Shown here: positions 511 through 57,133 of the stretch, piece by piece
Position numbering within the stretch: the first letter of the stretch is position 1
How the letters are laid out: each line of letters opens with the position of its first letter
DNA from: Owenia fusiformis
Lineage: Eukaryota; Annelida; Polychaeta; Sabellida; Oweniidae
Assembly (NCBI GenBank): GCA_903813345.2
Contig: CAIIXF020000008.1
Coordinates: forward strand, 10,567,278-10,631,277
Reading direction: 5' to 3'
Length of the DNA stretch: 64,000 nt
Translations under genes and position numbers: made by a program
The notes under the pieces: model-generated
What the model was told of the DNA's origin: nothing
Seen by the model: only the letters and a program-made list of their open reading frames with translations
Database searches by the model: none

Positions 511-1034
511 GCACAAATGCTATAACATGCGTATTCCCATCTAAATGATTTGTCCTTCAGAGAAATGAAGATTTTTGGACGAGTTATGGTATCATCATAC
601 CCCAGTATATTCTCTTTCAGTCAAAAAAGTTTGAACCAAAACTCCCCATGACAATCAAAAGGTCTCACCTGTAGAATACGCCATCTATAGAAAATTGTCA
701 CTCTGATTTTGACAGATGGAGGCAGGTCAAAAGGATCAAATTTCTTTAAGAAAATGCACCTCCATCACATCAAATCATGTGTTAGAGTTGGTCCATACAT
801 ACACTTTTTCATTCATGTACTTACCAAAATCCAACCACTGGTGATGCTAATATACATTATGTAACTACAATAATTGGACTATATTCTTGTTCTTAAAATG
901 CCATCTATTCGTCTTCCCACTCGGCGGAATGATCAATAAGTTGTGTGTCCCCGATTTCACTCACGGGAAGTACATAAGTTTCACAATTGGAACTGTATAG
1001 GCTAGGGAATATGATATGGAATCAATTAATCAAT

Positions 1035-4000
1035 AACAGTATGGCATCAGATGATATATGTCACGATATAGGGTAGAGATTTTTCTGTTTTTATTTTGTG
1101 CTACTTTTGGACTTAGAATAAAATCTAAAATGACCAGCCATCAGGGATCAGATTAAAAAAATAAGAACAGGACTCGTCAAAAGAGATAACGTATAGCATA
1201 AAATGGACTCTTTTTCAAAACCAACACAAATGGCGCAAAGTAGCACTTTCCAGAAAATAAACAAAGTTCAGCCTCTCGATAGATTTTCATACCTGTTTTT
1301 TCAAAACTAACAGAAATGGCGAAAACTAACATTTTTCAGAAAATAAACAAAGTTCAGCCCATCGATAGATTTTCATACCTTTTTTGAAAACCAACACAAA
1401 TGGCCAAAAGTAACACTTTTCCAGAAAATAAACAGAGTCCATCATATGATAGATTTTCATACCTTTTTTCAAAACCAACACAAATGGCCAAAAGTAACAC
1501 TTTTCCAGAAAATAATCAGAGTTCAGCCCATTGATAGATTTTCATACCTTTTTTGAAAACCAACACAAATGTCCAAAAGTAACACTTTTCCAGAAAATAA
1601 TCAAAGTTCAGCCCATCGATAGATTTCATCCCGTTTTTTCAAAACTAACACAAATGGTGAAAAGTAACACTTTTCCAGAAAATAAACAGAGTCCAGCATA
1701 CGATATATTTTCATACCTTTTTTCAAAACCAACACAAATGGTGAAAAGTAACACTTTTCCAGAAAATAAACAGAGTCCAGCATATAATAGATTTTCATAC
1801 CTTTTTTGAAAACCAACACAAATGACCAAAAGTAACACTTTTCCAGACAAGAGTCCAGCCTATCGATAGATTTTCATACCTTTTTTTAAAACCAACACAA
1901 ATGGCAAAAAGTAGCACTTTCCAGAAAATAAACAGAGTCCAGCATACGATAGATTTTCATACCTTTTTTCAAAACCAACACAAATGGCGAAAAGTAGCAC
2001 TTTTCAGAAAATAAACAGAGTCCAGCATAGGATAGATTTTTATACCTTTTTTCAAGACCAACACAAATGGCGAAAAGTAACACTTTTCAGAAAATAAACA
2101 GAGTCCAGCATACGATAGATTTTCATACCTTTTTTCAAAACCAACACAAATGGCGAAAAGTAACACTTTTCAGAAAATAAACAGAGTCCAGCATACGATA
2201 GATTTTCATACCTTTTTTCAAAACCAACACAAAATGGCGAAAAGTAACACTTTTCCAGAAAATAAACAGAGTCCTGTCTAGCGATAGATTTTCATACCTT
2301 TTTTCAAAACCAACACAAATGGCCAAAAGTAACACTTTTTCCAGAAAATAAATAGAGTCCAGCCTATCGATAGATTTTCATACCCCTTTTTCAAAACCAA
2401 CACAAATAGCCAAAAGTAACACTTTTCCAGAAAATAAACAGAGACCAACCTATCGATAGATTTTTATACCTTTTTTTCAAAAGGCCGTGGCTGGAGTGCC
2501 TTAAATTTTAAGGCTCTTTAGCATTTTGGTAACCAATTTGGCTAGAGAGCCTTAAATTTTAAGGTTCTTTAGCATTTCGGCTGAAAGAGCCTAAAATTTT
2601 AAGGCTCTTTAGCATTTTGATAGCCAATTTCGCTAGAGAGCCTGAAAGGAATTCTAGGTGACAGAAATGACAAAATATTGTTTCTTGGACGAGATCAAAC
2701 GACTTTGACTATATTCTATACCCAACCTATTTTGTAATTTTACAATCAGCACAAATATACATACCATATTAGCAGATATCGGACAAATTCATAAAAAATA
2801 TTTTTTGATCGATAAAATCGCTGATTATTAAACCGGAAGTGTCTTCTCTGAGGTCTGCGAAGAAGATGAAGAAGAAAACATATAAAGATTTCAGTCATTT
2901 CAAATTTGCCGTCGATTTGGTTTTAAATGGTTCTAAATTATCTTCGAATGCTTCCTATGACTTCTATTAGTACTGTTTTGACTTCCCCACTTCATAAAAA
3001 GAAGATTATCACCTTTTACTCGACTCATAACTTTACTTCCGGTCTACCGAGAAAAATAAAAGTTTGAACCTCAGTCAAGATTTGAAAAAAAACTTTTTGT
3101 TTATTTTCTGGAAAAGTGTTACTTTTTGCCATTTATGTTGCCTTTTAAAAAAGGAAAGAAAATCGATATATACTGAAGGCTGGACTCTGTTTATTTTCTG
3201 GAAAAGTGTTACTTTTGGCAATTTGTGTTGGTTTTGAAAAAAGGTATGAAAATCTATCGATAGGCTGATCTCTGTTTAGTGTTACTTTTGGCCATTTGTG
3301 TTGTTTTTGAAAAAAGGTATGAAAATCTATCGTATGTTGGACTCTGTTTATTTTCTGGAAATGTGCTACTTTTGGCCATTTGTGTTGGTTTTGAAAAAAG
3401 GTACGAAAATCTATCCTATGGACTCTGTTTATTTTCTGAAAAGTGTTACTTTTCGCCATTTGTGTTGGTTTTGAAAAAAGGTATGAAAATCTATCGTATG
3501 CTGGACTCTGTTTATTTTCTGAAAAGTGTTACTTTTCGCCATTTGTGTTGGTTTTGAAAAAAGGTATGAAAATCTATCGTATGCTGGACTCTGTTTATTT
3601 TCTGAAAAGTGTTACTTTTCGCCATTTGTGTTGGTTTTGAAAAAAGGTATGAAAATCTATCGTATGCTGGACTCTGTTTATTTTCTGAAAAGTGTTACTT
3701 TTCGCCATTTGTGTTGGTTTTCAAAAAGGTATGAAAATCTATCGTATGCTGGACTCTGTTTATTTTCTGAAAAGTGCTACTTTTCGCCATTTTTGTTGGT
3801 TTTGAAAAAAGGTATGAAAATCTATCGTATGCTGGACTCTGTTTATTTTCTGAAAAGTGTTACTTTTCGCCATTTGTGTTGGTTTTGAAAAAAGGTATAA
3901 AAATCTATCCTATGCTGGACTCTGTTTATTTTCTGAAACATTTCTGAAAAGTGTTACTTTTTGCCATTTGTTGGTTTTGAAAAAAGGTATGAAAATCTAT

Positions 4001-4722
4001 CGAATGCTGGACTCTGTTTATTTTCTGAAAAGTGTTACTTTTCGCCATTTGTGTTGGTTTTGAAAAAAGGTATAAAAATCTATCCTATGCTGGACTCTGT
4101 TTATTTTCTGAAAAGTGTTACTTTTCGCCATTTGTGTTGGTTTTGAAAAAAGGTATGAAAATCTATCGTATGCTGGACTCTGTTTATTTTCTGGAAAGTG
4201 CTACTTTTTGCCATTTGTGTTGGTTTTGAAAAAAGGTATGAAAATCTATCCTATGCTGGACTCTGTTTATTTTCTGAAAAGTGTTACTTTTCGCCATTTG
4301 TGTTGGTTTTGAAAAAAGGTATAAAAATCTATCGATAGACTTGACTCTGTTTATTTTCTGGAAAGTGCTACTTTTTGCCATTTGTGTTGGTTTTGAAAAA
4401 AGGTATGAAAATCTATCGTATGCTGGACTCTGTTTATTTTCTGGAAAAGTGATACTTTTGGCCATTTGTGTTGGTTTTGAAAAAAGGTATAAAAATCTAT
4501 CGATAGGCTGAACTCTGTTTATTTCCTGGAAAAGTGTTACTTTTGGCCATTTGTGTTGGTTTTGAAAAAAGGTATGAAAATCTATCGAAAGGCTGGACTG
4601 AACTGTATGTTTAAATGCCTGGTCATTTTAAATTTTATTTTAAGTCCAAAAGTAGCATAAAAAAAAAAAATACCCAATAATCGCTACCCTATATTGTGAC
4701 ACTGATGCATCAGATATGCTAC
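1035..4722. mobile_element. Large foldback element with 83-bp tandem-repeat arms
   Basis: Left arm: about 15 copies of an 83-bp unit (contains cataccttttttcaaaacca) from 1200 to 2480. Right arm: about 18 copies of the reverse complement from 3090 to 4600. The inversion continues beyond the arrays: gctacttttggactta at 1101 pairs with taagtccaaaagtagc at 4642, and tatagggtag at 1067 with ctaccctata at 4684. The central 600 bp carries short aaattttaaggctctttagc repeats (2505-2645) and no coding frame. The layout is that of foldback transposons. Open frames across the arrays are by-products of repetition. Confidence 0.8.
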
Positions 4723-4782
4723 AAATACAAACCCATTCCAAATGCCCAGTGTAAAAATAATGTTTTATTTTGATACTTGCAG

Positions 4783-6951
4783 GATATTCATGATGTAATA
4801 AAGCAAGCTCAAGATGTAAGTACATGCAAGGAGGATTGGAAGCCATTTTTTCAAACTTGTTACTCTGTTGCCCGGTCTATACCAATTTGGTATCAATATT
4901 ACTCATATTTTGAAGACTAGAAATGCTGAAGAAGCTTAAATACTACCAAAATATTCATAATGTCCATCTTTAACGAAATACTTGGTCCAAAGAGAACCAT
5001 ATACAAAATTTAATTTGTGGATGTTGTTTGGTGGTGGTTGGTGTCTGGCATTTTTTTTAACAAATGACAGGTGGTGAACTTTTGTATTTTTGCTCGATGT
5101 TCATGCCACCTGCTATGAATCTCTAGGTCAATTCACTCATTCTTATAAATGTTATACCAGCGTGAAATAATAAAAATAATAGAATAAATTATATGCATGT
5201 ACCATGATAATTGCATTATTTTACTTTATGTTGTAGAGTCGTGTAGCATGTGCTGTTGTTGTTGCTGAAACTAAAGATTGTTTTGAAAGAATTCTTTCAT
5301 TGTATGATAGGTAATTGGTAGCAATTACTCTATTTCTCCTCATTTATTTTCCCATGGGCATTGATTAGAAAGTGGCTTTTACAAATGACTATCATATAGA
5401 ATAATAGATGGCACTTTTGAAGTTAGATAAAATGTTTTCACTTTTCATAACCTCCTTGATAGTAAGCTCTTTTCCATCGTGAAAGATGTTTGAATTGTTT
5501 AAATTGATAACAATATATTTTCAAAATGTACACAACACCCATATAGCAAATCATTATTTAGTTTACATGTGTACCTATATTCCAGTTATCCAGAGTTCTG
5601 TATGCCATGTCTTGGGCTACATCCAGTACAAGGAGACTACAATAGTCCAAGTGAAGCAAGGAGTGTCAATTTAGAGGTATGATATAAATAATTCAATTGG
5701 TATAGTTATACTGGCCCTCTTGAAAGTATTGTATTTTAAGTCAAATACAGGATGTACCTAAAATCCAATTGCAGTTAATTTTAAAATGAAATACACTTTT
5801 TTTCCATGGAATTCCATGGAATTGATTCATTGTCAATGCTTTGGAGATCCCTTTAAATAATGCATGTATATACCATATTATTAAATATTTTATAGGATCT
5901 GGAAAAGGCCCTCCCAATTATAGAGGCTAACCAAGACAAACTTGTAGCGATCGGAGAGGTAAAAGAAAATGTTTTTCTTGCTTTACATATGTTAGTCCAA
6001 TTATCATTTATAGAACAGGGTATCCCGAAAGAATTGGACCCCCCAGGCAGACATATACAAATGTCTTCATAGTATGTGTCATATATCAATTTAAAGCTTA
6101 TTCAAAGTTGCATTGATTTGCCAAGTATCATGGTTCAACTCACAAATGGGAAAAGTTACATTTCAAAATTTAGTGTCCATGATATATGACACATACAATG
6201 GAGACATATGTCTGCTTAAGGGGGGGGGTCATACTTTCGGGGCATCCTGTATATTGTATCCTGATATCATAATTTTGCAATGCTCCAATATAATGGATAG
6301 AAATCATCTACAATTCAATATTTAACCTGTGCTTTCAATACAATATTTTTTTCTAAATCAGCTTACTCCATACAGAACAGCTCAAATTGACTTGGTGATC
6401 TAAATTGAAATATAAACTGTGTAATACTCTGGATATGTGAAAACTACACATTTCAGTAGAATCAAACATTTACTAATGTAGTTCAACTGTACAACAGCAT
6501 GTTGGATTTAGATCGTGGATAAATATACATGATTCACTATTTAGAATATTTGTTGAATTTAAACTGATTTCTGACTTTTAGGTTGGTCTTGACTTTACCC
6601 CTAGGTTTGTCAAGCAGGACTCTGACAAAGAGGCCCAAAGAGAGGTGCTGAGGAGACAAATTAAACTTGCACAGAAATATGATCTTCCCATGTAAGTCAT
6701 CTTTCATTTTGTTCTTGGGAAATGCTCCCTTTTCTCTTTTCCGATCAAATGATTTGATCTTCTTTGTGTCATTACTAGTATTCACTCTGTAGAATATATC
6801 TCTGGAGAAACTCCATGTTTAAATAGTGATTTGGGAAGTTTATGTATTGGTGTGCAACCATTTGTGCTATAATGCATTTATTTTGTTTTTTCTAGTAATG
6901 TTCACTCAAGATCAGCTGGAAGACCAACTATAGCTCTGCTAAAAGAAGAAG
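4783..6951 (+). CDS. TATDN3: TATDN3, first six visible exons
   Basis: Six compact exons: 4783-4815 (11 codons, starts [11 protein letters not shown]), 5237-5310, 5586-5676, 5896-5958, 6582-6691 and 6896-6951. The split codons agree: AG|T between exons 2 and 3, AT|T between 5 and 6, and a trailing G at 6951 that needs an acceptor in phase 1. They carry the first half of the TatD barrel, including the conserved Glu of GEVGLDF, which falls at the 5958/6582 junction, and the His of NVHSRS. Introns here are short (about 200-630 nt), unlike the 46 kb last intron. The first of these exons lies only about 60 bp after the end of a large foldback repeat. Confidence 0.9.
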
Positions 6952-9900
6952 GTTTGTGTCTTTTCCATTACATATATCCCATTGGGATTTTATATAATGT
7001 ACCCATCTGTTAAGAAAATATGAAGTTTGAGGTCTTGAATATTTTGTGATCTGAAGTTTCTTTCTCTATTGTCAAGAATGTAATTATATGATTGACACTT
7101 TGACTTACTTATTGTGGTTTAGAAATGTTCAAGTGTGCTATTTCATAGTATAATAAGAGGTTAAAATTACCAAATGTTGCATATTGGTTCGAGATTAGAC
7201 ACATTGTCCATTAGTGGGAATAATACAGTACATCTTGGACTTTCAAGAGATATGTTGAAAGCCCATGAGTACATGTTCCATCCCATAATAGTACAATAAG
7301 GTCATTTCGAAGGGCAATATAGTGAAATATTGGACCGAGGGCCGAAATGATGTTATTAGTATTATTACCACCATTAACGACCAGGACTGAAACAGCAAGA
7401 AAATCTTACGCACTGAACGATATCTAGTTTCCTGGGGAAAATTGCCAGTCGTTAAATGCATTCTCGACCGGTCTGAAATGCATTCTTGACCACCACTATG
7501 ACGTCACATATTGCTTAGGTTGATATAGTAAAATGAACGCCTTCTAGACTAGCACTAAAACTGTGGTAATAATACATAATCAGAAGGAAATTTATGATTG
7601 AAAATAGATTGAAAATATTGGATCTGTTGAAAGCCCACGTCTCTCCTTATAAGGATTTGTTTGTCATTTACTTTTAATTTCATTGTTATTTTGTCAGTAC
7701 ATGAAAGAGGGGGAAGTATGTATGTACATGTATATAAATACAGGGTGTTAAAAAAAACGCAACCCAAAGAAATTGCTATATCTTGGAAAATACTAATCCA
7801 ATTATGTTCATATTTTCAGGAAGGAAAGACGAGAATGTGTATGTATAGCCCCTGTTGTTAGTTAGTTGTAAAACATGATGCCTTGGACACTTGCTCAAAA
7901 GACAGGTGACAGCAAAATACGAAAAACGTGAATGGAAAATCACTATATCTTGGAAAATACTGATTCAATTATGTTCATTTTTCAGGAAAGGAAACAAGAG
8001 ACTGTTTATGTATAGCTCCTGCTGTCAGTTAGTTGTAAAACATGATGCCTTGGACACCAGCTCAAATGACAGTTGTACTAGGAAAATGTGAAAACGCTGT
8101 CAGAGGTGACTGCCACAGCAATAAAACCAAATAACTTTCTAACCATAGTGTTTTGGCACTTGAGATTTGGCACAATTATCCTTATTCAATGTGTGGTGAA
8201 TTTGTGGAGTTTCATCAAAATCACTCCAGGGACTTTACAGTCATGGTCAAAATGCCTTCTTAAGTCTCCCTGAACCAGGGTGTTTGACTGCGATTTGAAA
8301 GCATTTTGACCATGACTGTAAAGTCCCTGAAGTGATTTTGATTTCTCTCTACAGATTTACCATACAGTGAATGAAGATGATTTGTGCCAAATTTTAAGAG
8401 CCAAAACACTATGGTTAGAAAGTTATTTCGTTTTTATCATACCTAATAAAGGTACGATATTGTCGTCAGCTTGACGGGCGGGCGGCGTCTCACTTTTCAG
8501 CTTGTCTACAGGTTTCCAGCCAAACCATTTGACAGATTCATCTGAAATTTTCAGGAATGTTTCTATGTATCAAAGTTAAGAACTGATTAGTTTTTGGGCA
8601 TTCTGGGTAAATTTTTAGGTGGCCAATTTGGATTTTCCGTCCTAAAATCTTCACTTTCAAGACTTGTCTACAGGTTTCCAGCCAATCCATTTGACGGATT
8701 CATCTGAAATTTTCAGGAATGTTTCTACGATAAAAGTTAAGAACTGATTAGTTTTTGGGCATTCTAGGTAAATTTTAAGGTGGCCATTTTGGATTTTCCG
8801 TCCTAAAATCTTCACTTTCAAGACTTGTCTACAGGTTTCAAGCCAAACCATTTGACGGATTCATCTGAAATTTTCAGGGATGTTTCTACGTATCAAAGTT
8901 AAGAACTGATTAGTTTTTTGGCATTCTGGGTAAAATTTAAGGTGGCCATTTTGGATTTTCCGTCCTAAAATCTTCACTTTCAAGACTTGTCTACAGGTTT
9001 CCAGCCAAACCATTTGACGGATTCATTTGAAATTTACAGGGATGTTTCTACATATCAAAGTTAACAACTGATTAGTTTTTGGGCATTCTGGGTAAATTTT
9101 AAGGTGGCAATTTTGGATTTTCCGTCCTAAAATCTTCACTTTCAAGACTTGTCTACAGGTTTCCAGCCAAACCATTTGACGGATTCATCTGAAATTTTCA
9201 GGGATGTTTCTACGTATCAAAGTTAAGAACTGATTAGTTTTTGGGCATTCTGGGTAAATTTTAAGGTAGCCATTTTGGGTTTTCCGTCCTAAATTCTTCA
9301 CTGTCACACTGCTGTGTTTTAGGTACGATATTGTTCACGTCTGTGCCTTGTTTCCTGTTGCAGTCACCCCTGACTGTGTTTTTCGTATTTTCCTAGTACA
9401 ACTGTCTTTTGAGCATGTGTCCAAGGCATCATGTTTTACAACTAACCATTTACAGGAGCTATACATACACAGTCTCTTCTTTGTTTCCTGAAATGAACAT
9501 TATTGAACCAGTATTTTTCAAGATACAGTGATTTCTTTGGGTTGCGTTTTTTTAACACCCTGTATATACCAGTATACTATACATGTATACTATCTTAGTT
9601 TAATTTTAGTGATTGTGATTCTCGAGACCCTAATTTCCTGATTTATTATCATGTAGTCTAGCTAAAAGCCCTTGTCCCCCCCCTCATTACACCTACCCAC
9701 AAGCCAGTGCAGACAAGACTATGGTGGTAAAGTAGATAAGGGAGGATCCAGAGACTTAAATCAATGCTAAATATTACATAGAGCTCATATACTGAATGTC
9801 TGTTTAGGTCATCTCATGTTTACATCTTTATAGGTGTAAAGAGGGCGCTATTGCATGCATTCGATGGCCGTGCAGCTATTGCCATGGATGGGGTTCAAGC

Positions 9901-12900
9901 TGGATACTATTTCTCTGTACCGCCATCTATAGTCAGGAGTGAACAGGTACATCGTCATAGTGACAGAGTTATTGAAATAAAGTTCTCTTATCAATAGGTG
10001 TCAGGGCAGCAGTTCTCCATAATTTTGGTGGAAAGGCATCTGTTGCTCTAGAGGGTGTTGCTATTGGTTACCAGTTCTCTATTCCGCCTTATGCAATACA
10101 CAGGGATGAACAGGTTAGATCAAAACCATTGACCCTCTGAACAGCTGTTTCCATATCTTTTAAAGGCCCCATGCAAAGTTTGGAATATTGTTAAATCTTT
10201 GAAATATTATTGTTTGAGACATTTTTGAAATAAGTTTTAATTTTGATTTTCCTGCCTATTTAGCAGCAAACATTTAGATTTTTGGATCATCAAATGCAAC
10301 ACTCTACAGTAATAATGTATTAATTCACATTATTTTCTACAGTCCATAGATAGGTAGATCAAGTAAATGTGACAATATTTCGATCATTTAATTTCTTCTT
10401 TAATAGATATTTTTGAATATGTTAACTTTCAAAATAAAGCATTGGTGGTACACAGGCATATTGAAGTTGAAGGGATATGCAATGGTTATCCTGTCTTAAA
10501 TATTCCTGTACCATTTAATTTGAATGATTTGACTTTTTAAAATGCATTTTTCTGAACCATTTTTCTGCACTTTCTGTGAGTTAATTTCTCTCAAATTTTA
10601 GTAATCCCAAGAATAAACACCAGCTTTATGAAATATATTATAAAATATATGTTAAATATAAGTAATTTATCTCATTCTTGCAGAAATCTAAACTGGTGGA
10701 TAAAGTACCATTGACCCATTTGTTGTTAGAGACAGACTCACCTGCCCTTGGGCCTGAAAAACAAGTAAGTTATAGAAGGACTCATATAGATGGCAGTTCT
10801 TGTGGGTTGTTTTTCACACCCGACCCATTGTTTTGTGTGAAAATATTTCTGTATTAAAACTTCAAAAATATACTTGTACATTAATCAAATTGATATCGCA
10901 TTTTATTTTTCAATATATAGTTTCAATATCATAAGGTTCTGTATATTTTCATTGAATCTTGTGAGATTTTTGAAGCATTTTTAATTATTAAGTATATAAT
11001 TAAAACCTCTGAATTCTTTGCCATCTCTTGATAGTCCTTTTAATATGACAAACTAAAAACAGTCACTTATGATAAATGTGTTAATGTGATAAATCTCCAA
11101 TTAATTCGTTACTATAACAGTAAAAGTAAAACCAGAATATTTGTGGGACTGATTGATTTTTGGGGGTTTATTGGAGAGAGGCAGATTCAAAATTTGGGCC
11201 AATTAGTGGAAGAAAAATGGGGCAAGTGTAAAATATTTACAAGTTGTTATATTAGCCACCATCCATCCATCCATTCGTCCATCCATCCATCCATCCATCA
11301 ATCTGTCCATCCATTAAATCAACTTTTTAAAATATGGGCAAAATTTTGAAGGCCCCATTCAGTTTAGGCTAATCATTCAAATTTTAATTTTCATGACTTG
11401 AAAAACTATCAGCCAATTCCCGACATTTTAGAAACAAAAATTTAGATTTTTAGATCATCAAATACAAAACATAACACTGTTTAAACACATTGTTTGTGCC
11501 ACTCCACTGGATAGATCAGGCAAAAGTTGATTATTTCAACCATTCATGGAATGTCATGAGGATACTTTGAGGATATCTTTATTTCTTGTACAGATATTTT
11601 CTAAATATGCTTAACTTTCAAAATAAACCAATATTTCAAAAATTTTTATCATGTTTTGAATATTAATGTACCATTGGATTCAATGAGAAGTAAAATTTTA
11701 AAATGCTTTTTCTCTGAATGCTTTCTCTGCGCTAATGTGTTAATTTCTTGCTTATTTTCTATCTATTTTCATAAATTAATATTTTCATTACAACAAAATA
11801 GGTTAGAATGTATGTTATGGGTTGATGTAAATTATTGCCTAACAATGTACATGTTTCTGCTATTCTAGCTACAGATTCATAATTCCAAAAGTATTCAATC
11901 AATTTGCTTGAAACTCTACAGGTACTATACTTCACAAATAAGATAAAAAAATTAGTAGCAATTGAAGCATACCAGAAATCATTTAAACTTTATTGCAGTG
12001 TTTTATATTTTATTTATATACAGCAATGGACTCCAGCAAGGATACGGACCTTTCCATTTTCTCTTTCCATTTTTGTACCAGTATTTTGTGTCAAAAGTGA
12101 TGCCTCCTATCCTCGGTTTACATACTTGTCCCTGTCACACGGTTTTCCTTCTATAAAAACAACCAGCTCTGTTTTGGTATAAGACTAAAACTAAGTATTT
12201 AATGGATATATCAGTATATATTGCCCAACTTCCCATTTTCCTATCATGCCCAGGGGTGGTTGAAACCATGTATTGTTGTCAAGAACAGCTGTCAAAAAAT
12301 AAATATCAACAATAAAAAATGTAAAAATTTGTTTTGAAGAATCACGCCCCATTCTCAACACGTCGTACTAACAGAAGTGGATGACGTGCTTTTGGAGTCA
12401 AATTTGTAAGAACGTACTCATTTATTTCAACGTTTTGACAGAATATGAGCCTTTCTTCCTCATAGAAACATCGCCCATGCTACGCAGAGATCCCTTTAGT
12501 ATTGCTATGTCTCAACATTTTTTCTGAACACGATCTAGAACTTCTCAAACCTTCTAAAAAGCACAACATCTTCTTGAAAATATTGTCATTTTTCACAAAA
12601 TCCATCATATTTCCGACATATTGAGTTATATCGTCATGTTCAATTATTAATAAAATCATTATACATCATCCAGACACTTCAGTTTTCAAATAAATGGAAG
12701 AATTCGGAGGAATTAATTTAAGTTGGAAAGTGTACGACGTGAAGGGTGTGTACAAAGTGCACCATGATATTGTTGCTCATATGTCCTTGTTCTTAAAGGA
12801 ATATTCTTTGCCAGACCCTTTCTCTCTTGATATGGTAGCTATAATCATATATATAGTTTCCATATTTAGCAAAACATGGGAAAATGTTTTAATATGGTCA

Positions 12901-15900
12901 ATAATGATCATTTAAAAATCTAGTGCTTATTTCCAGTGAGCTGCCATCTTTTAAGATTTCTTGCAGGAAGTGATGTCATCAACTCTCAACTTCTATAACC
13001 TTGCCCATAACAGTATAGGAAAGTAGGACAAAATCACTTCTAGACAAATGATCATTACTTTCTGTGCAAAAATATTTTCAGGGCTTGTCAACTTAGAATA
13101 AAAGAAGAGATTTTCAGAAGGATTAAATAAGATACAAAGTTGAAGGAGAATATTTAGCTGGTTTAGTAATTTTTAATAGCTCCTCACCTAATGCTATATG
13201 CAAAGTTGAGAGTCGATGACATCACTTCCTGTGTGAAATTTTAAAAGATGGTAGCTTACTGGAATTGAGCATCACATTTCTAAGTGATCAAATTTGACCA
13301 TATCAAAACATTTTTGCGTGTTTTGCTAAACATGGCAAGCATATATATGGTTATAGCTACCATATGAGGAGAGAGATGGTTTGGCAAGGAATATTCCTCT
13401 AAGTTCCAAAACACATATTTCATAAGATTTACATGGATTTGCTATATAAATTTATGAAAATATGAATATGTTTTCTTCAAGTTGTGTCATGGGGTTTAGC
13501 AAGCCATGGCTGAAAAGTATCCATGGGCAAGAGAACTAAAGAAATAAACCATTGAACCATCCTATACAAGTATTTGTTATTTGTAATAACAAGCTACGTG
13601 CTTATTCAGGTCTAATGAAGTGTTGTATGGTTGTCAAGGTGACAATTCATGATGCCAACTGATACAAAAAAAGAACTTACAACTTGACCCTTGCAAATGT
13701 TTCCTTGAAAATATATTTCATATCTTTTAAGTGTTAGTCCAGGACTTAAATCCTTTAATAATTATGACTTTTGGGGAAGATTTTGTGTTATGATTTGATG
13801 ACACGTTCTAGCTCTTGTCAAGATGGATAACCATCTATACCAATATATTGTCCAACCAAGTAATTACAAAGCACCATGGTCTAAGGATATTTCACTTCGT
13901 ACCCATAGCAGCAAAGCCTGCTCTTGAGGAATGTCACAAAGTGATTTTAAATGCTATCAAAAACTACTTTGAATACCATTAATAATTACGTCTTGATGGC
14001 TTTCAAGATAATTAATGACTACATTATAAGTAATCTCTGATGGCACTCAAATGAATTTTTGATTGAGCTAAAGGTGATTCTTGTCATGGCGTGCAAAGTT
14101 TTACAATTCATTGATCTCGATGGCTACAAAGTAAAATATTCTCCTTGTAAAACTTAATATTGGCAATATCTCAAGGACGGAATTTACTATATTTGCACAT
14201 ATGGAAATCTTGATATTCCAAGTTCTTTTTAAAGGTCTTTTGTAAAAATGTAAGAAATTTTGGAAACACCTACACTACTTCAATCGATGCATAACATTCT
14301 AAAGTATCGTTTTTCTAACCATATATGGCTATCAGGAGTGGAAGAGGAAATATATTGAGGAAAATCTGATTGGAGTTGATAATTTTCAAGATGGTTTTTC
14401 AGGAAGTTGAGTAATGCGCTTGCGCCTCCATGCCATGAGATTTCCACTTCCGGTAAGTCGCATGCGCATTTGCGAGACTTCCTAGAAAACATGGAAAATA
14501 ACAAGTACCAAATACATTTTCGTCAATTAAACTGTCTCCCGACTCCGGATCGCGTGATATGGTTAGGAAAATGATACTTTAGAATGTTATGCATCGATTG
14601 AAGAAGCGTAAATGTTTCCAAAATTTCTTACATTTTTACAAAAGACTTTTAGAAAGGACTGGGAATATCAAGATTCTCATAGCCATCAATCTAAATGATG
14701 GCTATGTGCAAATATAGTAAGACAGAATCAAGATAATACATATCCACCTTTTGTATATGCAGTTCAATGATAATGAATTCTACCAGGTTCAGCAACGACC
14801 GATGCGGTACATCGTATCTCCATTTATATGTCAAATTTAAACCTACAACATCTTAAAATTTTTGGAAGCTCCTCGTTGGAAGAATACGCATTAACGGAGT
14901 TAATCACTAAAAGCGCACTGGGCGTTTATTTTGCACAAGGCATTTATTTGAAACAACTCAAAATAAATGCCCATGGGGCTTTATTAAGAGGGAAAACCAT
15001 TTTCCAAGAGAATGGGTGTTTATTAAGCTTAGAGGGTAAAGGTAGTCAATAAAAGCACTTTAAACATATTTCAATGAAGTTGTTGAATGTCCTCCACCTC
15101 GTACACACCCTTCATGTCGTACACTTTTCAACTAAAATTAATTTCTCTGAATTCTTTCATTTATTTCGGAAACTGGAGTGTCTGGTGTAGTTATTACATA
15201 ATATAATGGAAGATGTTTGAAATATGATGGATTTTGTGAAAAATGATTTCTAGATCACATTCAGAAAAAATACTGAGACGTAGCGTTACTAGACAAAAAC
15301 GTTATGTGACAATAATACAAATGTGCAATCACCGTTACGTGACATAATGAAAACATGCATTAAATATAATCTATATACAAATGTAGTGCAAATGATTAAA
15401 ACTGCAAGAATACCAAGTAAAATGCTTTGGAAAAGAACTGTAACGCAAACACTCAAAGAGTTCCATCTGAACGAATGGCACATTAAACTATTAACATATA
15501 GAAAACTCAGCCTATACTCAAATATAGTGATCGAGGTGAAACCAATATCATGGTGGATCATGGCCCGAAAATATCCCAGACTTGTCAAATACTCTCGGCT
15601 GATGGTTATGTTAATGACAGGTGAAGGAAATCTTCAAGTGAATATAGGTCGCTGGAAAAATACCCCAACCAATGAACGACTATGCAAAATGTGCAGATGT
15701 GAAATTGAAACGTTATCTCACATGCTGCTTGAATGTGAGCCTTTAAATGTGGAACGAACCCCTCTTCTGGATATGATGAGAGAATATGGTCTGACTGACA
15801 CTACATGCACAAATCAGCAGAAGTTGAACTTTATTTTTGACGAGGGACAGATTTTAGACTGCGAGGGTCTTATAAGGATAGCACAAAGTGTTTATAAAAT

Positions 15901-54900: not shown

Positions 54901-57133
54901 AAAACTTGTCAATCTCATCGCTGATATCATTTCCTGTTCTGGTTGACCACTTGTTCCCAGCATTGCAATCACTATGGCTGTTGTTATACTGATTGGTCCA
55001 AAGAAGAGGTTTCCTGGATCATTTCCTCCTGTGCTTGCCTCCTCTAGGAGCTTGTTGTAGATGTCTAGGGAGAACTGATTGTGGGCCTGGGCTACCTCCT
55101 CTACTAGTACATTATGGACCATCCCACAACAAAGAAGCAACAGCGTTACCAAAATGATCTGACTCTTTAATGGCTCCATATCTAGCTTTCTATTGCCCTC
55201 TAAAAATTAAAAATAAAATAAATATCAGTATTTTCATCATATTTTTGACAAATTATTTTAATAGATTTAGAAAATGACATATTATTTACCTGTTCACCTT
55301 TTTAATTTCACCTGACTAATGATTCCCCATCCAACCTGTTCTTTTATCTTGGGACATCTGTCATGTTTATACTCACAAAATGCTGATGCACAATGATTGT
55401 TATTTCTGGCAATAATCAAAGTCTGTGGAATTGTTGAATAGGCCACTCGTCCCTCTGTCTGTCCATCCATATACCTCTTTACCAATTTGGATAATATTTA
55501 GGATAAAACTGCTTTATTACAACCTCTGTCTAAGAGAACATCCCTGAAAATGACATTTTAAGCTAATACTTGAATGCTTCTTTCCCAACTTTGGTTAGCC
55601 TAGAATAAAAAAAAACTCAATAGGTTTACAATCTCTGATCTCTGACAATTTCCAAATTGACCTTCGAATTCAAAATAGCCCCCACTTTCTTTCATGACAT
55701 AATTTTCACCAAAATATGTCACTTTTACTGCCTGGTTTTCTTATTATGGAATGAAGTCATACAATTTGAAAAGTGAGTGATTTGATAAGATTGTTTGGTG
55801 GAATTTGCTTCTCTGTGGAGCTGCTGCTTTTCTCGTTTCATTTGTATTGGATTAAATGCCAGATGAAGTTCCTGGTGTCTGTTGTTCATTAAGATTATTA
55901 AATTTTGAGTTTGATTATTTATATGAATGCTAGACTAGAGTGCTGATAGAGCATGATGAAGGATTTTTGATATTTTGCATTACTCTCTCAATAATTTTTA
56001 GGAAAGGATGGGTATGGATATGGTGAACTTTTTCAACATACATTTCTCTTAAACCAGTCATCAAAAAATTCTGAAAATTTTATACATCGTCAATTTAATG
56101 GTTATCTTTTGAATGGTAACAAGATAATTTGAAATAAATATGTATACTTTTCTCTTTTATTGTTTTAGAAAACACATCAGACACTTCTTTTGTTCTTGGT
56201 ATCATATTTTCAGAATGAAATGAAACATCTTTCCGAGCCTCATTGGAAAAAAATGACATAAACAAAAAGTGTTTAGGTCTCTCAATATTGTAATTGTATA
56301 AAGGAAAGTTTGGTTGATTTAAAAAAGTATCTTTTTTGAAATAAAAGGTTTATCTTAATTTTTATCTATTTTGGGGGTTTTTGTTTTAATTTTTTGAATA
56401 CTTGTTGTTAAATCAACCAAAATTTCCTTTGTATAACTATAATATTGATAGGTCTAGGAAAATGTTGTATATGCTATTTTGTTCCAACAAGGTTATTTTA
56501 TTTCATTCTCAAGAATTTGTAATAAGGAACAAAATTGAACTAAAAAAAAATGTTAACAAAAACAGTTACTGGGGTATATGAAATATATATAAAAAATATT
56601 CGCATTAAATTGTTGTAATAAAATTGTTGTCAATCAGTCAAAATTACCTAAAGGACCGTGTTTTTTACAGAGTGTTCTCAATAATTGGTTTAAGAGAAAC
56701 ACATGGCAACACCTTTTATTATCTGACCACCAGAAGTGGCGACATATTGTTATAGTCTCCAACTTGTTTTGTGGATGGTGTTTGGTGGTTGGTGTTTGGC
56801 TCTCAGCATCTGTAGCAAATGGCAGGTGGTAAGATTTGCATGCCATTGCCTTGTTTCTTTATGCATCTAACATGTCTATTTCTGATTTTTATCTTACTCG
56901 ATACACAAACAGGTATGTTATTGTTTTCAGGCATTTTTGAGTCTAAGGTACGATATTATTCACGTGTGCCATATTTTATTTTCCAGGTGAGGAACGTACC
57001 AGCCAACATCTTCCATTCTGCAGAATACATTGCCAAAATTAAAAAAGTAAGCGTAGAAGACGTCATCAGAATAACAACTGAGAATGCTTTGAGACTTTTT
57101 CCAAAACTGACTAGATATATGAAAAAAATATGA
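4783..57133 (+). CDS. TATDN3: TATDN3-like TatD metal-dependent DNase, 5' partial, multi-exon
   Basis: Joined exons read as a TatD-family hydrolase most like animal TATDN3, a putative metal-dependent deoxyribonuclease with a TIM-barrel fold. Exons: 4783-4815, 5237-5310, 5586-5676, 5896-5958, 6582-6691, 6896-6951, 9834-9946 (or alternative 9998-10113), 10684-10764 and 56987-57133. All have AG acceptors and GT donors. Their sum is 768 nt, 255 codons plus stop, with no frame break. Motifs in order: [18 protein letters not shown] (metal-ligand Glu), [12 protein letters not shown] (ligand His), LLHAFDG (ligand His), [15 protein letters not shown] (ligand Asp) and the C-terminal SAEYIAKIK. Vertebrate TATDN3 is about 274 residues, so roughly 20 N-terminal residues with the His-x-His motif are missing. 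I found no exon for them between 1 and 4782, so exon 1 probably lies upstream. The last intron is 46.2 kb and contains two serpin genes on the other strand. Confidence 0.92.
6015..6251. mobile_element. Short copy of the C/G-run TIR element
   Basis: The ends acagggtatcccgaaag and ctttcggggcatcctgta are imperfect inverted repeats followed inside by runs of C or G. The internal sequence matches the longer element at 60776-61426 (for example ttgccaagtatcatggttca), so this is a deletion derivative inside a TATDN3 intron. Confidence 0.7.
7739..9564. mobile_element. TA-flanked 1.8-kb TIR element with foldback and tandem core
   Basis: The terminal repeats are about 35 bp (cagggtgttaaaaaaaacgc at 7741; its inverse ends at 9562), flanked by TA on both sides, as in Tc1/mariner-type insertions. 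Inner arms are also inverted: the stretch around 8120-8256 pairs with 8300-8440 (ttttgaccatgactgtaaag). A nested tandem array occupies 8501-9310. There is no transposase, so it is non-autonomous. It lies in the TATDN3 intron before exon 7a. Confidence 0.75.
8501..9310. repeat. Five tandem copies of a ~162-bp unit
   Basis: cttgtctacaggtttc recurs at 8501, 8663, 8824, 8986 and 9148, a period of 161-162 bp. Units share gattttccgtcctaaa. Copies are about 90% or more alike by eye. Sequences like aggtacgatattgt flank the array (8456 and 9322). Confidence 0.85.
9834..9946 (+). CDS. TATDN3: TATDN3 alternative exon 7a
   Basis: This 113-nt exon starts with two bases that complete the Gly codon begun at 6951 and ends at a codon boundary. 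It reads [12 protein letters not shown] and continues to ...[17 protein letters not shown] matches the conserved TatD motif whose His is a metal ligand, so this copy is the one that resembles known TATDN3 proteins. The donor is GTACAT at 9947. A second, homologous exon lies 51 bp downstream in the same splice phases. Confidence 0.9.
9998..10113 (+). CDS. TATDN3: TATDN3 alternative exon 7b (duplicate of 7a)
   Basis: This 116-nt exon has the same entry and exit phases as 7a and an intact 38-codon frame plus the split Gly. It reads [20 protein letters not shown] and ends ...[12 protein letters not shown]. About half the residues match 7a by eye. The metal-ligand His is kept (VLHNF), but the neighbouring Asp of FDG becomes Gly and one residue is inserted after PP. 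The acceptor is tcaatag and the donor is GTTAGA, which looks weaker than that of 7a. The clean frame, kept splice sites and conservative changes suggest a functional alternative exon and not a relic. No expression evidence is available here. Confidence 0.8.
10160..10640. repeat. Repeat-family copy upstream of TATDN3 exon 8
   Basis: Begins ggccccatgcaaagtttg and shares blocks with 11350-11850 and 44256-45087, including tttagatttttggatcatca and a segment with aatgcatttttctgaaccat. It ends within about 40 bases of exon 8. Confidence 0.6.
10684..10764 (+). CDS. TATDN3: TATDN3 exon 8 (ETDSP motif)
   Basis: A 27-codon exon in phase 0 at both ends, starting [10 protein letters not shown] after ttgcag and ending GPEKQ before GTAAGT. 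It carries [15 protein letters not shown], the TatD motif whose Asp is a metal ligand. Copies of one repeat family lie on either side (about 10160-10640 and 11350-11850). The next exon is 46,222 bases downstream. Confidence 0.9.
11261..11316. repeat. (CCAT)n microsatellite
   Basis: Imperfect run of CCAT units broken by cgtc and caatctg. Confidence 0.9.
11350..11850. repeat. Repeat-family copy downstream of TATDN3 exon 8
   Basis: Starts ggccccattcagtttagg and shares tttagatttttagatcatc with the copy at 10160, and catgacttgaaaaactat plus aatgtaccattgg with the complete copy at 44256-45087. A CCAT microsatellite precedes it. Confidence 0.6.
12340..12490. repeat. Repeat paired in inverted orientation with 46465-46620
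   Basis: gacagaatatgagcctttct at 12437 is the inverse of sequence near 46498-46520, and acgtgcttttggagtcaaat matches atttga-type sequence near 46550. The two copies lie outside the large array, 34 kb apart. Confidence 0.6.
12505..15290. mobile_element. Nested foldback element complex
   Basis: Three inverted pairs are nested. Outer: 12505-12762 with 15092-15290 (sharing cacaaaatccatcatatttc and its inverse). Second: 12797-13003 with 13203-13409 (gtgatgtcatcaactctcaa with ttgagagtcgatgacatcac). Third: 14165-14345 with 14555-14740 (cgatgcataacattctaaag and its inverse). The intervening 13410-14160 and 14740-15090 show no gene. A LINE fragment abuts the right end. Confidence 0.65.
15290..15937 (+). 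mobile_element. 5'-truncated LINE, ORF2 C-terminal end
   Basis: The open frame 15323-15937 (204 codons) has the C-terminal features of a non-LTR retrotransposon ORF2: [20 protein letters not shown], then a zinc-knuckle [20 protein letters not shown] with spacing C-x2-C-x8-H-x4-C. No reverse-transcriptase motifs are present, so the copy is 5'-truncated and dead. Its 3' flank ends in an ATA-rich tail near 16138-16160, exactly where the large repeat array starts. The clade cannot be assigned from this part. Confidence 0.75.
16195..16375. repeat. gctgagtaagta minisatellite, type-A module head
   Basis: About a dozen 12-bp units of the form gtagctgagtag. The same type recurs at about 26540-26760, 27800-28030, 36110-36340, 37830-38040 and 39610-39710, always directly after agactccagat(tgattta) of a module head. 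Confidence 0.85.
17195..17305. repeat. ctggacttggac minisatellite
   Basis: Short units of ggacctggac and gacttggac. Similar tracts lie at about 41345-41415 and 41540-41635. They seem to grow out of the gacctag motif of the units. Confidence 0.75.
29735..29925. repeat. ggata/ggaag purine minisatellite, type-C module head
   Basis: Purine-rich tract of aggatag, aggaag and agaata units. Counterparts follow other type-C heads at about 31150-31330, 33160-33350, 34570-34770, 40650-40845 and 42325-42535, with a smaller one at 41405-41520. Confidence 0.85.
32940..33045. repeat. Mini-hairpin cluster (2 units)
   Basis: Two units of agactccagat-loop-atctggagtct separated by taataataagaaaactgacg. The hairpin word is the same agactccagat found at every module head. 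Confidence 0.85.
35887..36047. repeat. Mini-hairpin cluster (3 units)
   Basis: Three agactccagat/atctggagtct hairpins with loops tgat, gaa and tttca, followed directly by aataactaga and a new module head. Single hairpins also occur at 40386-40411 and 42178-42203. Confidence 0.85.
43665..43992. repeat. Mini-hairpin cluster (6 units)
   Basis: Six regularly spaced hairpins (agactccagat, short loop, atctggagtct) with near-identical linkers containing gaaaactggcaaaagcaata. The spacing is about 54-62 bp. Followed at once by a module head at 44011. Confidence 0.88.
44256..45087. mobile_element. 832-bp TTAA-flanked element inserted in the array
   Basis: Inverted ends agtccccgtctaaagttt and aaactttagatggggact are flanked by TTAA at 44252-44255 and 45088-45091. 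The uninterrupted target ggtttaaagattc is present in sister modules (for example near 21570), which fixes both the boundaries and the duplication. TTAA duplication is typical of piggyBac-type transposons. No transposase is present. Confidence 0.85.
46345..46455. repeat. Terminal mini-hairpin pair of the array
   Basis: Two agactccagat/atctggagtct hairpins with gaaaacaggcaaaaacaata and gaaaactggcaaaagcaata linkers, ending aataactagag. The array stops here. Confidence 0.85.
46465..46620. repeat. Inverted partner of 12340-12490
   Basis: Sequence such as gaagaaaggctcatattctg is the inverse of the copy near 12440. It starts immediately where the module array ends. Confidence 0.6.
46621..48160. other. 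No gene recognised
   Basis: AT-rich intronic sequence of TATDN3. Open frames of 72 and 79 codons at 47121 and 47454 show no recognisable motif. Some non-repeat, GC-richer patches (about 47590-47690) were examined without a match. Confidence 0.5.
48162..48670. mobile_element. Foldback element overlapping the serpin A stop codon
   Basis: Arms of about 75 bp: 48162-48236 and 48595-48670 are inverted copies (left contains cacggacgtcaagta and gcatagattatttagaggac). The interior of about 360 bp is non-coding. The right arm covers the last two codons and the TAA of serpin A exon 3. Confidence 0.8.
48664..48815 (-). CDS. Serpin A exon 3 (VWC-like cysteine-rich tail)
   Basis: Acceptor ttttcag; the first two bases complete Cys with the T at 49294. 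The peptide reads [17 protein letters not shown], then [20 protein letters not shown], then WCW, and ends EEKLGSR. The spacing C-x2-DG-x2-Y-R-x-G plus C-x4-C-x-C-x7-C resembles a single VWC domain. The paralogue has the same layout with different residues, supporting a real exon. The last codons and the TAA fall inside the arm of a foldback repeat (48162-48670), so the present C terminus may have been altered by that insertion. Confidence 0.72.
48664..51195 (-). CDS. Secreted serpin A with C-terminal VWC-like tail
   Basis: Three coding exons on the minus strand: 51195-50106, 49509-49294 and 48815-48664. Total 1458 nt, 485 residues plus stop. A hydrophobic signal segment ([10 protein letters not shown]) follows MEKFKS. 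The serpin fold is clear: [13 protein letters not shown], the hinge [11 protein letters not shown] across the exon 1/2 junction, and the ADHPFLFVI signature with FMGRVV near the end of the fold. NCT, NKT and NLS are possible N-glycosylation sites. After the fold come a Thr-rich linker ([18 protein letters not shown]) and a Cys-rich tail encoded by exon 3. The canonical small-residue hinge implies an inhibitory serpin that traps a protease; the target is unknown. The gene lies inside the last TATDN3 intron on the opposite strand, and its paralogue lies 1.2 kb upstream. Confidence 0.88.
49294..49509 (-). CDS. Serpin A exon 2 (reactive-centre loop and strand cap)
   Basis: Acceptor tttcag at 49510; donor T|GTGAGT at 49293. 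The exon starts (G)[19 protein letters not shown] and includes ADHPFLFVI and [10 protein letters not shown]. Aligned by the Ser-Ile pair to alpha-1-antitrypsin, P1 would be Thr and P1' Ser, which is tentative because loop lengths vary. The frame would stop at TGA (49283) if the donor were not used, but the paralogue keeps the same GTGAGT at the same codon and both have a matching downstream exon. Confidence 0.85.
49778..49866 (+). pseudogene. Isolated first-exon-like fragment, possibly Crypton/DUF3504-type
   Basis: ATG followed by [18 protein letters not shown] and [11 protein letters not shown], then AG|GTAATA. It looks like a 5' coding exon with a donor. The style (MA..RF..L.E.D...LL....A.NTKR) recalls the N termini of Crypton-derived or ZMYM/DUF3504-like proteins that are abundant in invertebrates, but this is recognition from memory with low certainty. 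I saw no matching second exon on the plus strand. It sits inside serpin A intron 1 on the opposite strand and is followed by a long palindrome (49893-50058), so a stranded transposon fragment is the likeliest reading. Confidence 0.35.
49893..50058. repeat. Long palindrome in serpin A intron 1
   Basis: aacaaatatttcactctatt at 49907 pairs with its inverse ending near 50043, and gtgatattccac pairs with gtggaatatcac around a short centre (49969-49983). This is an almost continuous hairpin of about 70 bp per arm, 50 bases from the exon 1 donor. Confidence 0.85.
50106..51195 (-). CDS. Serpin A exon 1 (signal peptide and main fold)
   Basis: Start ATG at 51195-51193; the frame is open for 363 codons, then the donor G|GTAAAG at 50105. 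The split Gly is P15 of the reactive loop. The same ATG context and N terminus occur in the paralogue. The open frame runs past the donor to 50017, but that extra peptide has no serpin character and enters a palindromic repeat. The acceptor of a preceding 5' untranslated intron may lie at ggtag just upstream of the ATG, by analogy with the paralogue. Confidence 0.88.
51330..51500. repeat. ~58-bp tandem repeat upstream of serpin A
   Basis: Alternating words aaaaagtgatatcccatttt and aaaaatgatgtcccattaat, about three units, in the likely 5' leader intron of serpin A. Confidence 0.75.
51591..51712 (-). promoter_or_regulatory. Serpin A upstream leader exon/promoter candidate
   Basis: A block shared with the region upstream of serpin B. 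It holds a donor-like ACAG|GTAAAT at 51597/51596, a TATAAA on the minus strand at 51646-51641, and a conserved stretch around TGCATCAGCATTTTG. The paralogous conservation suggests a non-coding first exon and promoter. The exact transcription start cannot be fixed from sequence. Confidence 0.4.
52401..52537 (-). CDS. Serpin B exon 3 (VWC-like cysteine-rich tail)
   Basis: Acceptor attttag; CA completes Ser with the T at 53058, then the peptide reads [20 protein letters not shown] followed by [17 protein letters not shown] and ends KEAYLC. The pattern C-x2-DG-x2-Y-R-x-G-x2-LP and C-x4-C-x-C-x6-C matches the tail of serpin A and the general plan of VWC domains. It is strongly basic ([17 protein letters not shown]), which could favour binding to acidic glycans; that is inference. 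Confidence 0.72.
52401..55179 (-). CDS. Secreted serpin B with C-terminal VWC-like tail
   Basis: Paralogue of serpin A with the same exon layout: 55179-54096, 53276-53058 and 52537-52401. Total 1440 nt, 479 residues plus stop. The signal segment ([12 protein letters not shown]) is followed by the serpin fold with [13 protein letters not shown] and the hinge [11 protein letters not shown], an excellent inhibitory consensus. The fold ends [10 protein letters not shown], then a Thr-rich linker and a basic, Cys-rich tail. It is very similar to serpin A over the core, including silent positions, so the duplication is recent or subject to conversion. Divergence concentrates in the reactive loop, the region around [13 protein letters not shown], and the tail. 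A possible minus-strand poly(A) signal lies at 52101-52106. Confidence 0.88.
52886..52967. mobile_element. 82-bp hairpin MITE
   Basis: The ends taccggattttctcgc and gcgagaaaatccggta are perfect 16-bp inverted repeats around a short centre. It lies in serpin B intron 2. Confidence 0.8.
53058..53276 (-). CDS. Serpin B exon 2 (reactive-centre loop and strand cap)
   Basis: Acceptor ttttag at 53277, donor T|GTGAGT at 53057. It starts (G)[20 protein letters not shown] and rejoins near identity with serpin A at [12 protein letters not shown]. The loop is one residue longer than in serpin A. Thr-Ser before Ile again suggests a Thr at P1, but P6-P2 are ILIET here against TVGT in A, which would change protease specificity. 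Confidence 0.86.
53465..54090. repeat. Two tandem 312-bp palindromic units in serpin B intron 1
   Basis: tatcgtatgatctgtaaaat starts at 53465 and again at 53777, an offset of 312. Each unit holds two hairpins: one built on ctgagattgtcccc and one on attgaatgatttgaagtgca with its inverse. The second unit ends at the exon 1 donor. Readthrough into it explains the long apparent open frame of serpin B. Confidence 0.85.
54096..55179 (-). CDS. Serpin B exon 1 (signal peptide and main fold)
   Basis: ATG at 55179-55177, donor G|GTAAAT at 54095, same split Gly as serpin A. The open frame continues to 53938, but that part is encoded by an intronic palindromic repeat and would be used only if the intron were retained. 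The sequence ttttag at 55206-55200 just upstream of the ATG looks like the acceptor of a 5' untranslated intron. Confidence 0.88.
55281..55410 (-). promoter_or_regulatory. Serpin B upstream leader exon/promoter candidate
   Basis: Counterpart of the serpin A block: donor-like ACAG|GTAAAT at 55290/55289, minus-strand TATAAA at 55371-55366, and the conserved TGCATCAGCATTTTG stretch. A fitting acceptor (ttttag) lies at 55206-55200, so a short 5' untranslated intron of about 90 bases is plausible. Confidence 0.4.
55500..56800. other. Serpin B upstream region, partly paralogous to serpin A upstream
   Basis: Around 55910-56000 the sequence (for example gctgatagagcatgatgaag) resembles 51840-51890, so the duplicated block extends several hundred bases upstream of each gene. 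No gene is seen. A ggtgtttggtggttggtgtt tract near 56775 resembles ones near 5030 and 58400. Confidence 0.5.
56987..57133 (+). CDS. TATDN3: TATDN3 terminal exon
   Basis: Forty-eight codons plus TGA follow the acceptor ttccag. The peptide begins [20 protein letters not shown] and ends LTRYMKKI; it matches the C terminus of TATDN3 proteins (vertebrate copies have VRNEP and SAEYIA at the same place). An open frame extends upstream to 56819 but has no family similarity, and the acceptor fits the phase-0 donor at 10765. A short stretch just upstream (about 56945-56970) resembles a piece of the repeat near 9322. Confidence 0.92.
   Translation: MRNVPANIFHSAEYIAKIKKVSVEDVIRITTENALRLFPKLTRYMKKI

What the first reader, a model, noticed from the sequence alone, without database searches (positions are those of the whole stretch)
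9834..10113. Two adjacent homologous TATDN3 exons that appear mutually exclusive
Exons 7a and 7b have the same entry and exit phases and both are open. They share about half their residues and keep the metal-ligand His. Only 51 bases separate them, probably too short for a spliceosome to remove as an intron. Joining 7a to 7b shifts the frame and gives TAG at 10049-10051. So both distance and frame force one-or-the-other use. The exchanged segment surrounds the active-site loop (LLHAFDG against VLHNFGG), so isoforms could differ in substrate or activity.
Basis: partly seen in the sequence, partly recalled or inferred. Interest (0 to 1): 0.85.

Follow-up and report, generated by a model that had tools for sequence, protein, structure and literature searches.

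The report
Swappable active-site exon pair in TATDN3
An animal gene for a DNA-cutting repair enzyme carries two versions of the exon that builds part of its active site, laid out so that an mRNA can probably use one or the other but not both; the layout is of a known kind, and the open papers searched held no report of it in this gene.

Summary
9834-9946 (7a, 113 nt) and 9998-10113 (7b, 116 nt) are homologous exons of an animal TATDN3 gene, 51 nt apart, with the same phases and 20 of 37 residues identical (E 9e-10). Either alone keeps the frame; both give TAG at 10049-10051; neither also breaks it. Every adenine before the 7b acceptor AG lies within 48 nt of the 7a donor, under the published 50-nt steric limit, so exclusive use is likely. 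Frame only spoils double products. 7b is not simply decaying: 4 of 5000 neutral mutants of 7a with equal identity fit the TATDN3 profile as well. The pair encodes a strand-loop-helix-strand-loop unit of the barrel. 7b keeps the invariant histidine and a matching helix but loses family signatures in both loops (HAFDG to HNFGG; PPSIVRS to PPYAIHRD). Human TATDN3 matches 7a. Best explanation: a mutually exclusive, tandem-duplicated exon pair that changes one face of the active site. No RNA data and no animal genome could be examined. New member of a known kind.

The parts
4783..4815 (+). TATDN3 exon (first one found in the window; 33 nt)
   Evidence: AG/GT borders, open in frame, aligns to human TATDN3 from chain residue 21
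5237..5310 (+). TATDN3 exon
5586..5676 (+). TATDN3 exon
5896..5958 (+). TATDN3 exon ending in AIGE, whose Glu matches the metal-ligand Glu107 of human TATDN3
   Evidence: residue number from PMC10085689, matched by alignment
6582..6691 (+). TATDN3 exon
6896..6951 (+).
9834..9946 (+). Exon 7a, like human: [37 protein letters not shown]
   Evidence: 24 of 37 residues as in human TATDN3; 95.3 bits against the TATDN3 profile
9947..9997 (+). 51-nt gap between the exons; branch-point-like adenines at +29 (TTGAA) and +34 (ATAA), pyrimidine-rich +37 to +46
   Evidence: the gene's other introns lying wholly in the window are 204 nt or longer
9998..10113 (+). Exon 7b, divergent copy: [38 protein letters not shown]
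   Evidence: 20 of 37 residues as in 7a and 20 of 37 as in human; 42.5 bits against the profile
10684..10764 (+).
   Evidence: residue number from PMC10085689, matched by alignment
56987..57133 (+). Last TATDN3 exon with stop codon (VRNVPANIF...TRYMKKI*)
9681..9695 (+). Possible pairing arm, 14 of 15 complementary to 9831-9845 across the 7a acceptor; weaker pairing to the 7b acceptor. Doubtful.
   Evidence: 23 of 3557 (0.65%) non-repeat positions have as good an upstream partner; fold z-score only -0.33

Best explanation
An exon of an animal TATDN3 gene was duplicated in tandem long ago, and the two copies are now mutually exclusive alternatives. Shown here: homology, matching phases, both open, one-codon length difference, a 51-nt gap, and a broken frame for the double and the skipped product. 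Inferred for splicing: U1 on the 7a donor and U2 on the 7b branch point, about 29-34 nt away, cannot assemble together, so the 51-nt piece is not removed as an intron and exon 6 joins either 7a or 7b; rare double or skipped products are out of frame and probably destroyed. Inferred for the protein: the swapped unit is strand 6, loop 6, helix 6, strand 7 and loop 7 of the TatD barrel. Form A is the ordinary TATDN3 nuclease. Form B keeps the metal-binding histidine and the scaffold but has two altered active-site loops and one inserted residue, so it differs in DNA substrate, in the balance of AP-endonuclease to 3'-exonuclease activity, or is a weak or regulatory form.
For: Homology E 9e-10 and same phases. 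Frame logic. Candidate branch points at +29 and +34; the highest adenine before the acceptor AG is at +48, under the 50-nt threshold used in PMC5740500 and PMC7969005 (passages). Isoform B still matches human TATDN3 at 299.6 bits (A 324.8) and Pfam TatD_DNase at 189.3 (A 193.1). dN/dS between the copies about 0.48. 4 of 5000 neutral mutants of 7a with equal identity fit the TATDN3 profile as well as 7b. Differences avoid informative columns (permutation P 0.0019) and are more conservative than random changes (P 0.0033 BLOSUM62, 0.0083 profile). Helix 6 holds its profile score (18.3 to 16.7 bits) while the two strand-and-loop segments fall (29.5 to 5.7 and 47.6 to 20.1). The segment layout agrees with a predicted structure of the bacterial relative L001, pLDDT 97.2, closest solved structure human TATDN3 2y1h.
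Against: No transcript or peptide was available. No animal collection could be searched, so conservation of 7b is untested. The pairwise dN/dS alone cannot exclude neutral drift of 7b over half of the divergence. The 7b acceptor is the second weakest of the ten scored. 7b loses positions nearly invariant in the clade, its residues at the 17 differing sites sum to -21.8 bits, disfavoured although less so than random changes at -42.5, and it scores below all 51 signature-bearing relatives (42.5 against a minimum of 55.3). Some animals splice introns of about 50 nt (recalled), so the steric argument is not absolute.
Confidence: 0.78

Rival explanations
1. 7b is a decaying duplicate, not or hardly used, that has simply not yet gained a stop codon.
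For: It departs from clade signatures at HAFDG and PPSIVRS and has the second weakest acceptor of ten by a recalled matrix. If half the third-position changes fell on its branch, a neutral copy would keep about as many identities as seen.
Against: 4 of 5000 neutral mutants of equal identity reach its profile score. Substitutions lie in more variable columns and are more conservative than random. It is open over 38 codons, has both splice sites and the exact phase, and G+C of 0.47 between introns of 0.36 and 0.28.
Confidence: 0.13
2. The pair is a switch for gene output rather than for protein form: inclusion of both exons, or of neither, makes a frame-shifted mRNA that is destroyed, and the ratio sets the TATDN3 level.
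For: Both the double and the skipped product are out of frame.
Against: Protein-level constraint on 7b is not needed for a poison exon. The 51-nt gap works against double inclusion.
Confidence: 0.06
3. Choice between the exons is set by RNA pairing: an intronic arm at 9681-9695 hides the 7a acceptor or, in its other state, the 7b acceptor. This could act together with the best explanation.
For: 14 of 15 complementarity across the 7a acceptor, duplex -22.0 kcal/mol (1 of 300 random pairs as good); the same arm is the best upstream partner of the 7b acceptor, -13.4 kcal/mol (3 of 300 as good).
Against: 23 of 3557 background positions (0.65%) do as well and five sites were tried, so about 3% by chance. 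The two acceptors share TAGGTGT by descent, so the second match is not independent. The fold is no more stable than shuffles: z -0.33, 65 of 200 shuffles as good. No other species to test.
Confidence: 0.08
4. Assembly artefact: 7a and 7b are two alleles or paralogous copies placed side by side.
For: The window is rich in tandem repeats.
Against: The copies differ at 17 of 37 residues, with 15/9/19 changes at codon positions 1/2/3, too many for alleles, and the gene's other exons each give one match in the window.
Confidence: 0.01

Closest known systems
Tandem duplicated exon substitution events (mutually exclusive homologous exons)
   Same: Adjacent homologous exons, same phase, similar length, lengths not divisible by three, folded-domain segment, about half the residues kept. 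236 such events are annotated in human (PMC9741552, abstract, passages and section 10).
   Different: No paper in the library held TATDN3 together with 'mutually exclusive'. [quoted passage not shown]
OGDH exons 4a/4b
   Same: Branch points 25-41 nt from the upstream donor, below the steric limit, enforce exclusive use (PMC7969005, abstract and passages). Here the candidates are at 29-34 nt.
   Different: The gap here is only 51 nt, with a short rather than very long pyrimidine tract, and the branch points are predicted, not mapped.
KHK and ACOX1 exon pairs
   Same: Exon swap beside a ligand site of an enzyme with the key residues kept: the catalytic arginine of KHK, all five predicted FAD-binding residues of ACOX1 (PMC9741552 section 10).
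   Different: Different fold and chemistry (general knowledge); here signature residues of the loops are not kept.
Human TATDN3 (PDB 2y1h)
   Same: Form A is 61% identical over the aligned region. Human TATDN3 is an AP endonuclease and 3'-exonuclease (PMC10085689, abstract, passages and section 15).
   Different: The crystallised human form has only the 7a-like segment. Whether the human gene has a second copy was not testable here.

Membership tests
Mutually exclusive tandem-duplicated exons | Neighbouring internal exons with significant sequence similarity | tested here: met
   52.6% over 38 columns, E 9e-10
Mutually exclusive tandem-duplicated exons | Same reading frame and splice phase, length differing by whole codons, no stop | tested here: met
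   113 and 116 nt, both open
Mutually exclusive tandem-duplicated exons | A mechanism against joint inclusion | tested here: met
   By sequence only: 51-nt gap, predicted branch points 29-34 nt from the donor; joint product frame-shifted
Mutually exclusive tandem-duplicated exons | Transcripts with each exon and few or none with both | not testable with these tools
   No RNA data available
Mutually exclusive tandem-duplicated exons | Both copies under protein-level selection | tested here: met
   Profile and substitution tests on 7b, with 7a as stand-in for the ancestor; the pairwise dN/dS alone is inconclusive
TATDN3 (TatD nuclease, group II) | Best match to human TATDN3 among solved structures; Pfam TatD_DNase above its cut-off | tested here: met
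   2y1h E 3.3e-96 (A) and 1.8e-88 (B); next 2gzx 4.2e-27 (A) and 2.3e-26 (B)
TATDN3 (TatD nuclease, group II) | N-terminal HxH motif | tested here: inconclusive
   First exon not found in the forward frames of 1-4783; it may lie outside the window
TATDN3 (TatD nuclease, group II) | Clade signature HAFDG ... PPSI(V/I)RSxQ in the swapped segment | tested here: inconclusive
   Met by form A, not met by form B, which has HNFGG and [10 protein letters not shown]: of 79 relatives with a residue there, 0 have N after the His, 2 have G for D, 0 have Q for F/Y, 0 have D for the last S
Docking-site or competing-RNA-structure splicing | Conserved complementary arms | tested here: inconclusive
   One arm with borderline chance probability, fold z -0.33; conservation not testable

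The most novel reading that the evidence does not exclude
One gene makes two forms of a DNA-repair nuclease with different active-site faces. A steric splicing switch chooses between the canonical TATDN3 site and a remodelled one that keeps the metal-binding histidine but has new loops, and hence a different nucleic-acid substrate or a different balance of AP-endonuclease to exonuclease activity.
Probability: 0.4. Interest if true: 0.62.

Novelty: new member of a known kind. Interest (0 to 1): 0.45.

Why it matters
If used, the pair is a natural experiment on which loops decide substrate and activity in TatD nucleases: same protein, same metal residues, only two loops and a helix exchanged. 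It would add a DNA-repair enzyme to those whose active site is switched by exon choice, and give a very compact (51-nt) case for testing steric enforcement of exon choice.

Tried and rejected
Searches for relatives: isoform B alone found none in genome contigs (87 pattern matches, none confirmed), and an 85-residue part of it none in viral contigs (17, none). No eukaryote collection was available, so the decisive comparison with related animals was not possible and the species was not identified; that it is an animal is inferred from the gene.

Pairwise dN/dS was judged not decisive because a neutral 7b with half of the changes on its branch would look similar. It was replaced by tests of which changes occurred. 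The null mutants start from 7a as a stand-in for the ancestor, and the profile rows were the 51 of 80 relatives that carry the HAFDG-like motif plus human; 29 relatives were left out of it. The alternative gap placement in 7b gives 41.0 instead of 42.5 bits.

Age of the duplication: identities 7a-human 24 of 37, 7b-human 20, 7a-7b 20; sites shared only by 7a and human 8, only by 7b and human 4, only by 7a and 7b 4. This does not tell whether the duplication came before or after the split from the human line.

An RNA pairing across the 7a acceptor was examined and kept only as a weak rival. Rfam gave nothing at gathering threshold for 4700-11000.

Literature, in the held open-licence library only: 'TATDN3' in 30 papers, 29 listed; with 'mutually exclusive' 0; 'TatD' with 'mutually exclusive exons' 8, seen as listing only, where the word start may also match TATDN1 and TATDN2; 'TatD' with 'alternative splicing', 'isoform' and 'exon duplication' 0; 'mutually exclusive exons' with 'nuclease', 'active site' and 'homologous exons' 1, listing only. 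(TATDN3 with animal names, any two terms) was too broad to be useful: 3,224 papers, 3 listed, none with TATDN3. Searches served to find papers on exon duplication. Papers read: PMC10085689 (abstract, passages, section 15), PMC5740500 (passages), PMC7969005 (abstract and passages), PMC9741552 (abstract, passages, section 10).
Full report
What was claimed. Two adjacent homologous exons, 7a at 9834-9946 and 7b at 9998-10113, in an animal TATDN3 gene, used one or the other.

Observation. The coordinates are exact. 7a is 113 nt and 7b 116 nt, both bounded by AG and GT, with 51 nt between. Both complete the same split Gly codon left by the upstream exon and end on a full codon. Their peptides are 52.6% identical over 38 columns, tblastn E 9e-10, and the window holds no third copy (next matches E above 2). 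Spliced forms with 7a or 7b are open through the shared downstream exon. The form with both has its first in-frame stop at TAG 10049-10051, and the form with neither is also out of frame. G+C is 0.50 and 0.47 in the two exons against 0.36 and 0.28 in the flanking introns. The gene continues to a last exon at 56987-57133.

Which gene. Partial isoform A (255 aa) matches human TATDN3 (2y1h) at 324.8 bits and isoform B (256 aa) at 299.6 bits. The next solved structure is 2gzx at 98.6 and 96.3 bits. Pfam TatD_DNase: 193.1 and 189.3 bits. Isoform A is 61% identical to human over the aligned part, and the human segment resembles 7a.

Why exclusive. The 51-nt gap has candidate branch adenines at +29 and +34 from the 7a donor, 22 and 17 nt before the 7b acceptor, followed by a short pyrimidine-rich stretch. 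The highest adenine before the acceptor AG is at +48. Published work uses 50 nt between donor and branch point as the steric limit: potential steric interference in 57 human clusters, 9% (PMC5740500, passages). In OGDH, mapped branch points 25-41 nt from the donor enforce exclusive use (PMC7969005, abstract and passages). The other introns of this gene that lie within the window are 204, 219, 275, 421, 570, 623 and 2882 nt, plus 46,222 nt for the last (10765-56986, by subtraction). Frame is a second, weaker layer: it spoils double products but does not prevent them. In human, 83 of 377 clusters with lengths not divisible by three had joining reads.

Is 7b alive? The pairwise figures are dN 0.45, dS 0.93, ratio 0.48, with 15, 9 and 19 differences of 37 at codon positions 1, 2 and 3. 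Alone these do not exclude drift of 7b. A stronger test used 80 prokaryotic relatives, of which 51 carry the HAFDG-like motif. Against a profile of those 51 plus human, 7a scores 95.3, human 102.1 and 7b 42.5 bits. Of 5000 stop-free neutral mutants of 7a with the same 20 of 37 identities, 4 (0.08%) reach 7b; their mean is 4.0, sd 11.6. Differences sit in less informative columns (2.18 against 3.06 bits, permutation P 0.0019) and are more conservative than random changes (BLOSUM62 sum 7 against a null mean of -10.2, P 0.0033; profile sum -21.8 against -42.5, P 0.0083). So 7b has been held to a TatD-like pattern for much of its life. Against this, it scores below all 51 relatives (minimum 55.3).

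What the swap changes. A structure predicted for the bacterial relative L001 (33-sequence alignment; pLDDT 97.2, pTM 0.93) places the segment as strand 152-155, loop, helix 161-169, strand 173-176 and the following loop and short helix. Its closest solved structure is human TATDN3, TM 0.95, rmsd 1.2. Going from 7a to 7b, the profile score falls in the first strand and loop (29.5 to 5.7 bits) and in the second strand and loop (47.6 to 20.1), but hardly in the helix (18.3 to 16.7). 7b keeps the histidine, present in 79 of 79 relatives with a residue there, and the F, G, FS, PP, R and Q of the pattern. It changes A to N (0 of 79 relatives have N), D to G (2 of 79), F/Y to Q (0 of 79) and S to D (0 of 79), and inserts one residue (0 of 80). 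In an alignment of 33 relatives the two serines of SIVRS are invariant and A and D of HAFDG nearly so. The histidine corresponds by position to TATDN1 His174, a ligand of one metal; H174A cut AP endonuclease only two-fold and left exonuclease unchanged (PMC10085689, section 15). That correspondence is my inference from spacing. Retaining the histidine therefore does not by itself show that form B is active, and the functional difference between the forms is inference.

Comparison with the known kind. [quoted passage not shown] The present pair fits this kind in the features that the sequence could test. It is unusual in diverging most at the active-site loops. I found no report for TATDN3, within an open-licence library only.

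Limits. No RNA, no peptide, no animal genome and no species name. RNA pairing over the 7a acceptor (14 of 15; 23 of 3557 background positions as good; fold z -0.33) is too weak to rely on. The pattern of shared residues among 7a, 7b and human does not date the duplication.

Verdict. A real and probably functional mutually exclusive exon pair: new member of a known kind, of moderate interest, higher if form B proves to be a nuclease with changed specificity.

Noticed in passing
50017-51213 and 53938-55206, minus strand: Two long serpin reading frames (Pfam Serpin 297 and 295 bits) lie nested, on the opposite strand, in the 46-kb last intron of TATDN3 (10765-56986); by eye their translations are very alike.
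   Followed up: partly
1211-2482 and 3098-4599: Two arrays of an 83/84-nt tandem unit in opposite orientation, a large palindrome of tandem repeats just upstream of the first exon found.
   Followed up: no
7741-9561: An element-like stretch in intron 6 with similar inverted ends (by eye) around a 162-nt unit repeated 5.1 times at 8490-9306.
   Followed up: no
18308-38774: Repeated blocks built on units of 475-477 nt and 133 nt, with 12/24-nt AGCTGAGTAAGT arrays; similar ORFs of 90-99 codons recur in them, one of which was tested and has no Pfam match.
   Followed up: partly
15293-15937, plus strand: 214-codon ORF resembling the end of a reverse transcriptase (zf-RVT 20.9 bits, below the cut-off of 27.5).
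   Followed up: partly
53464-54091: 312-nt unit in two copies, overlapping the 3' end of the second serpin frame.
   Followed up: no
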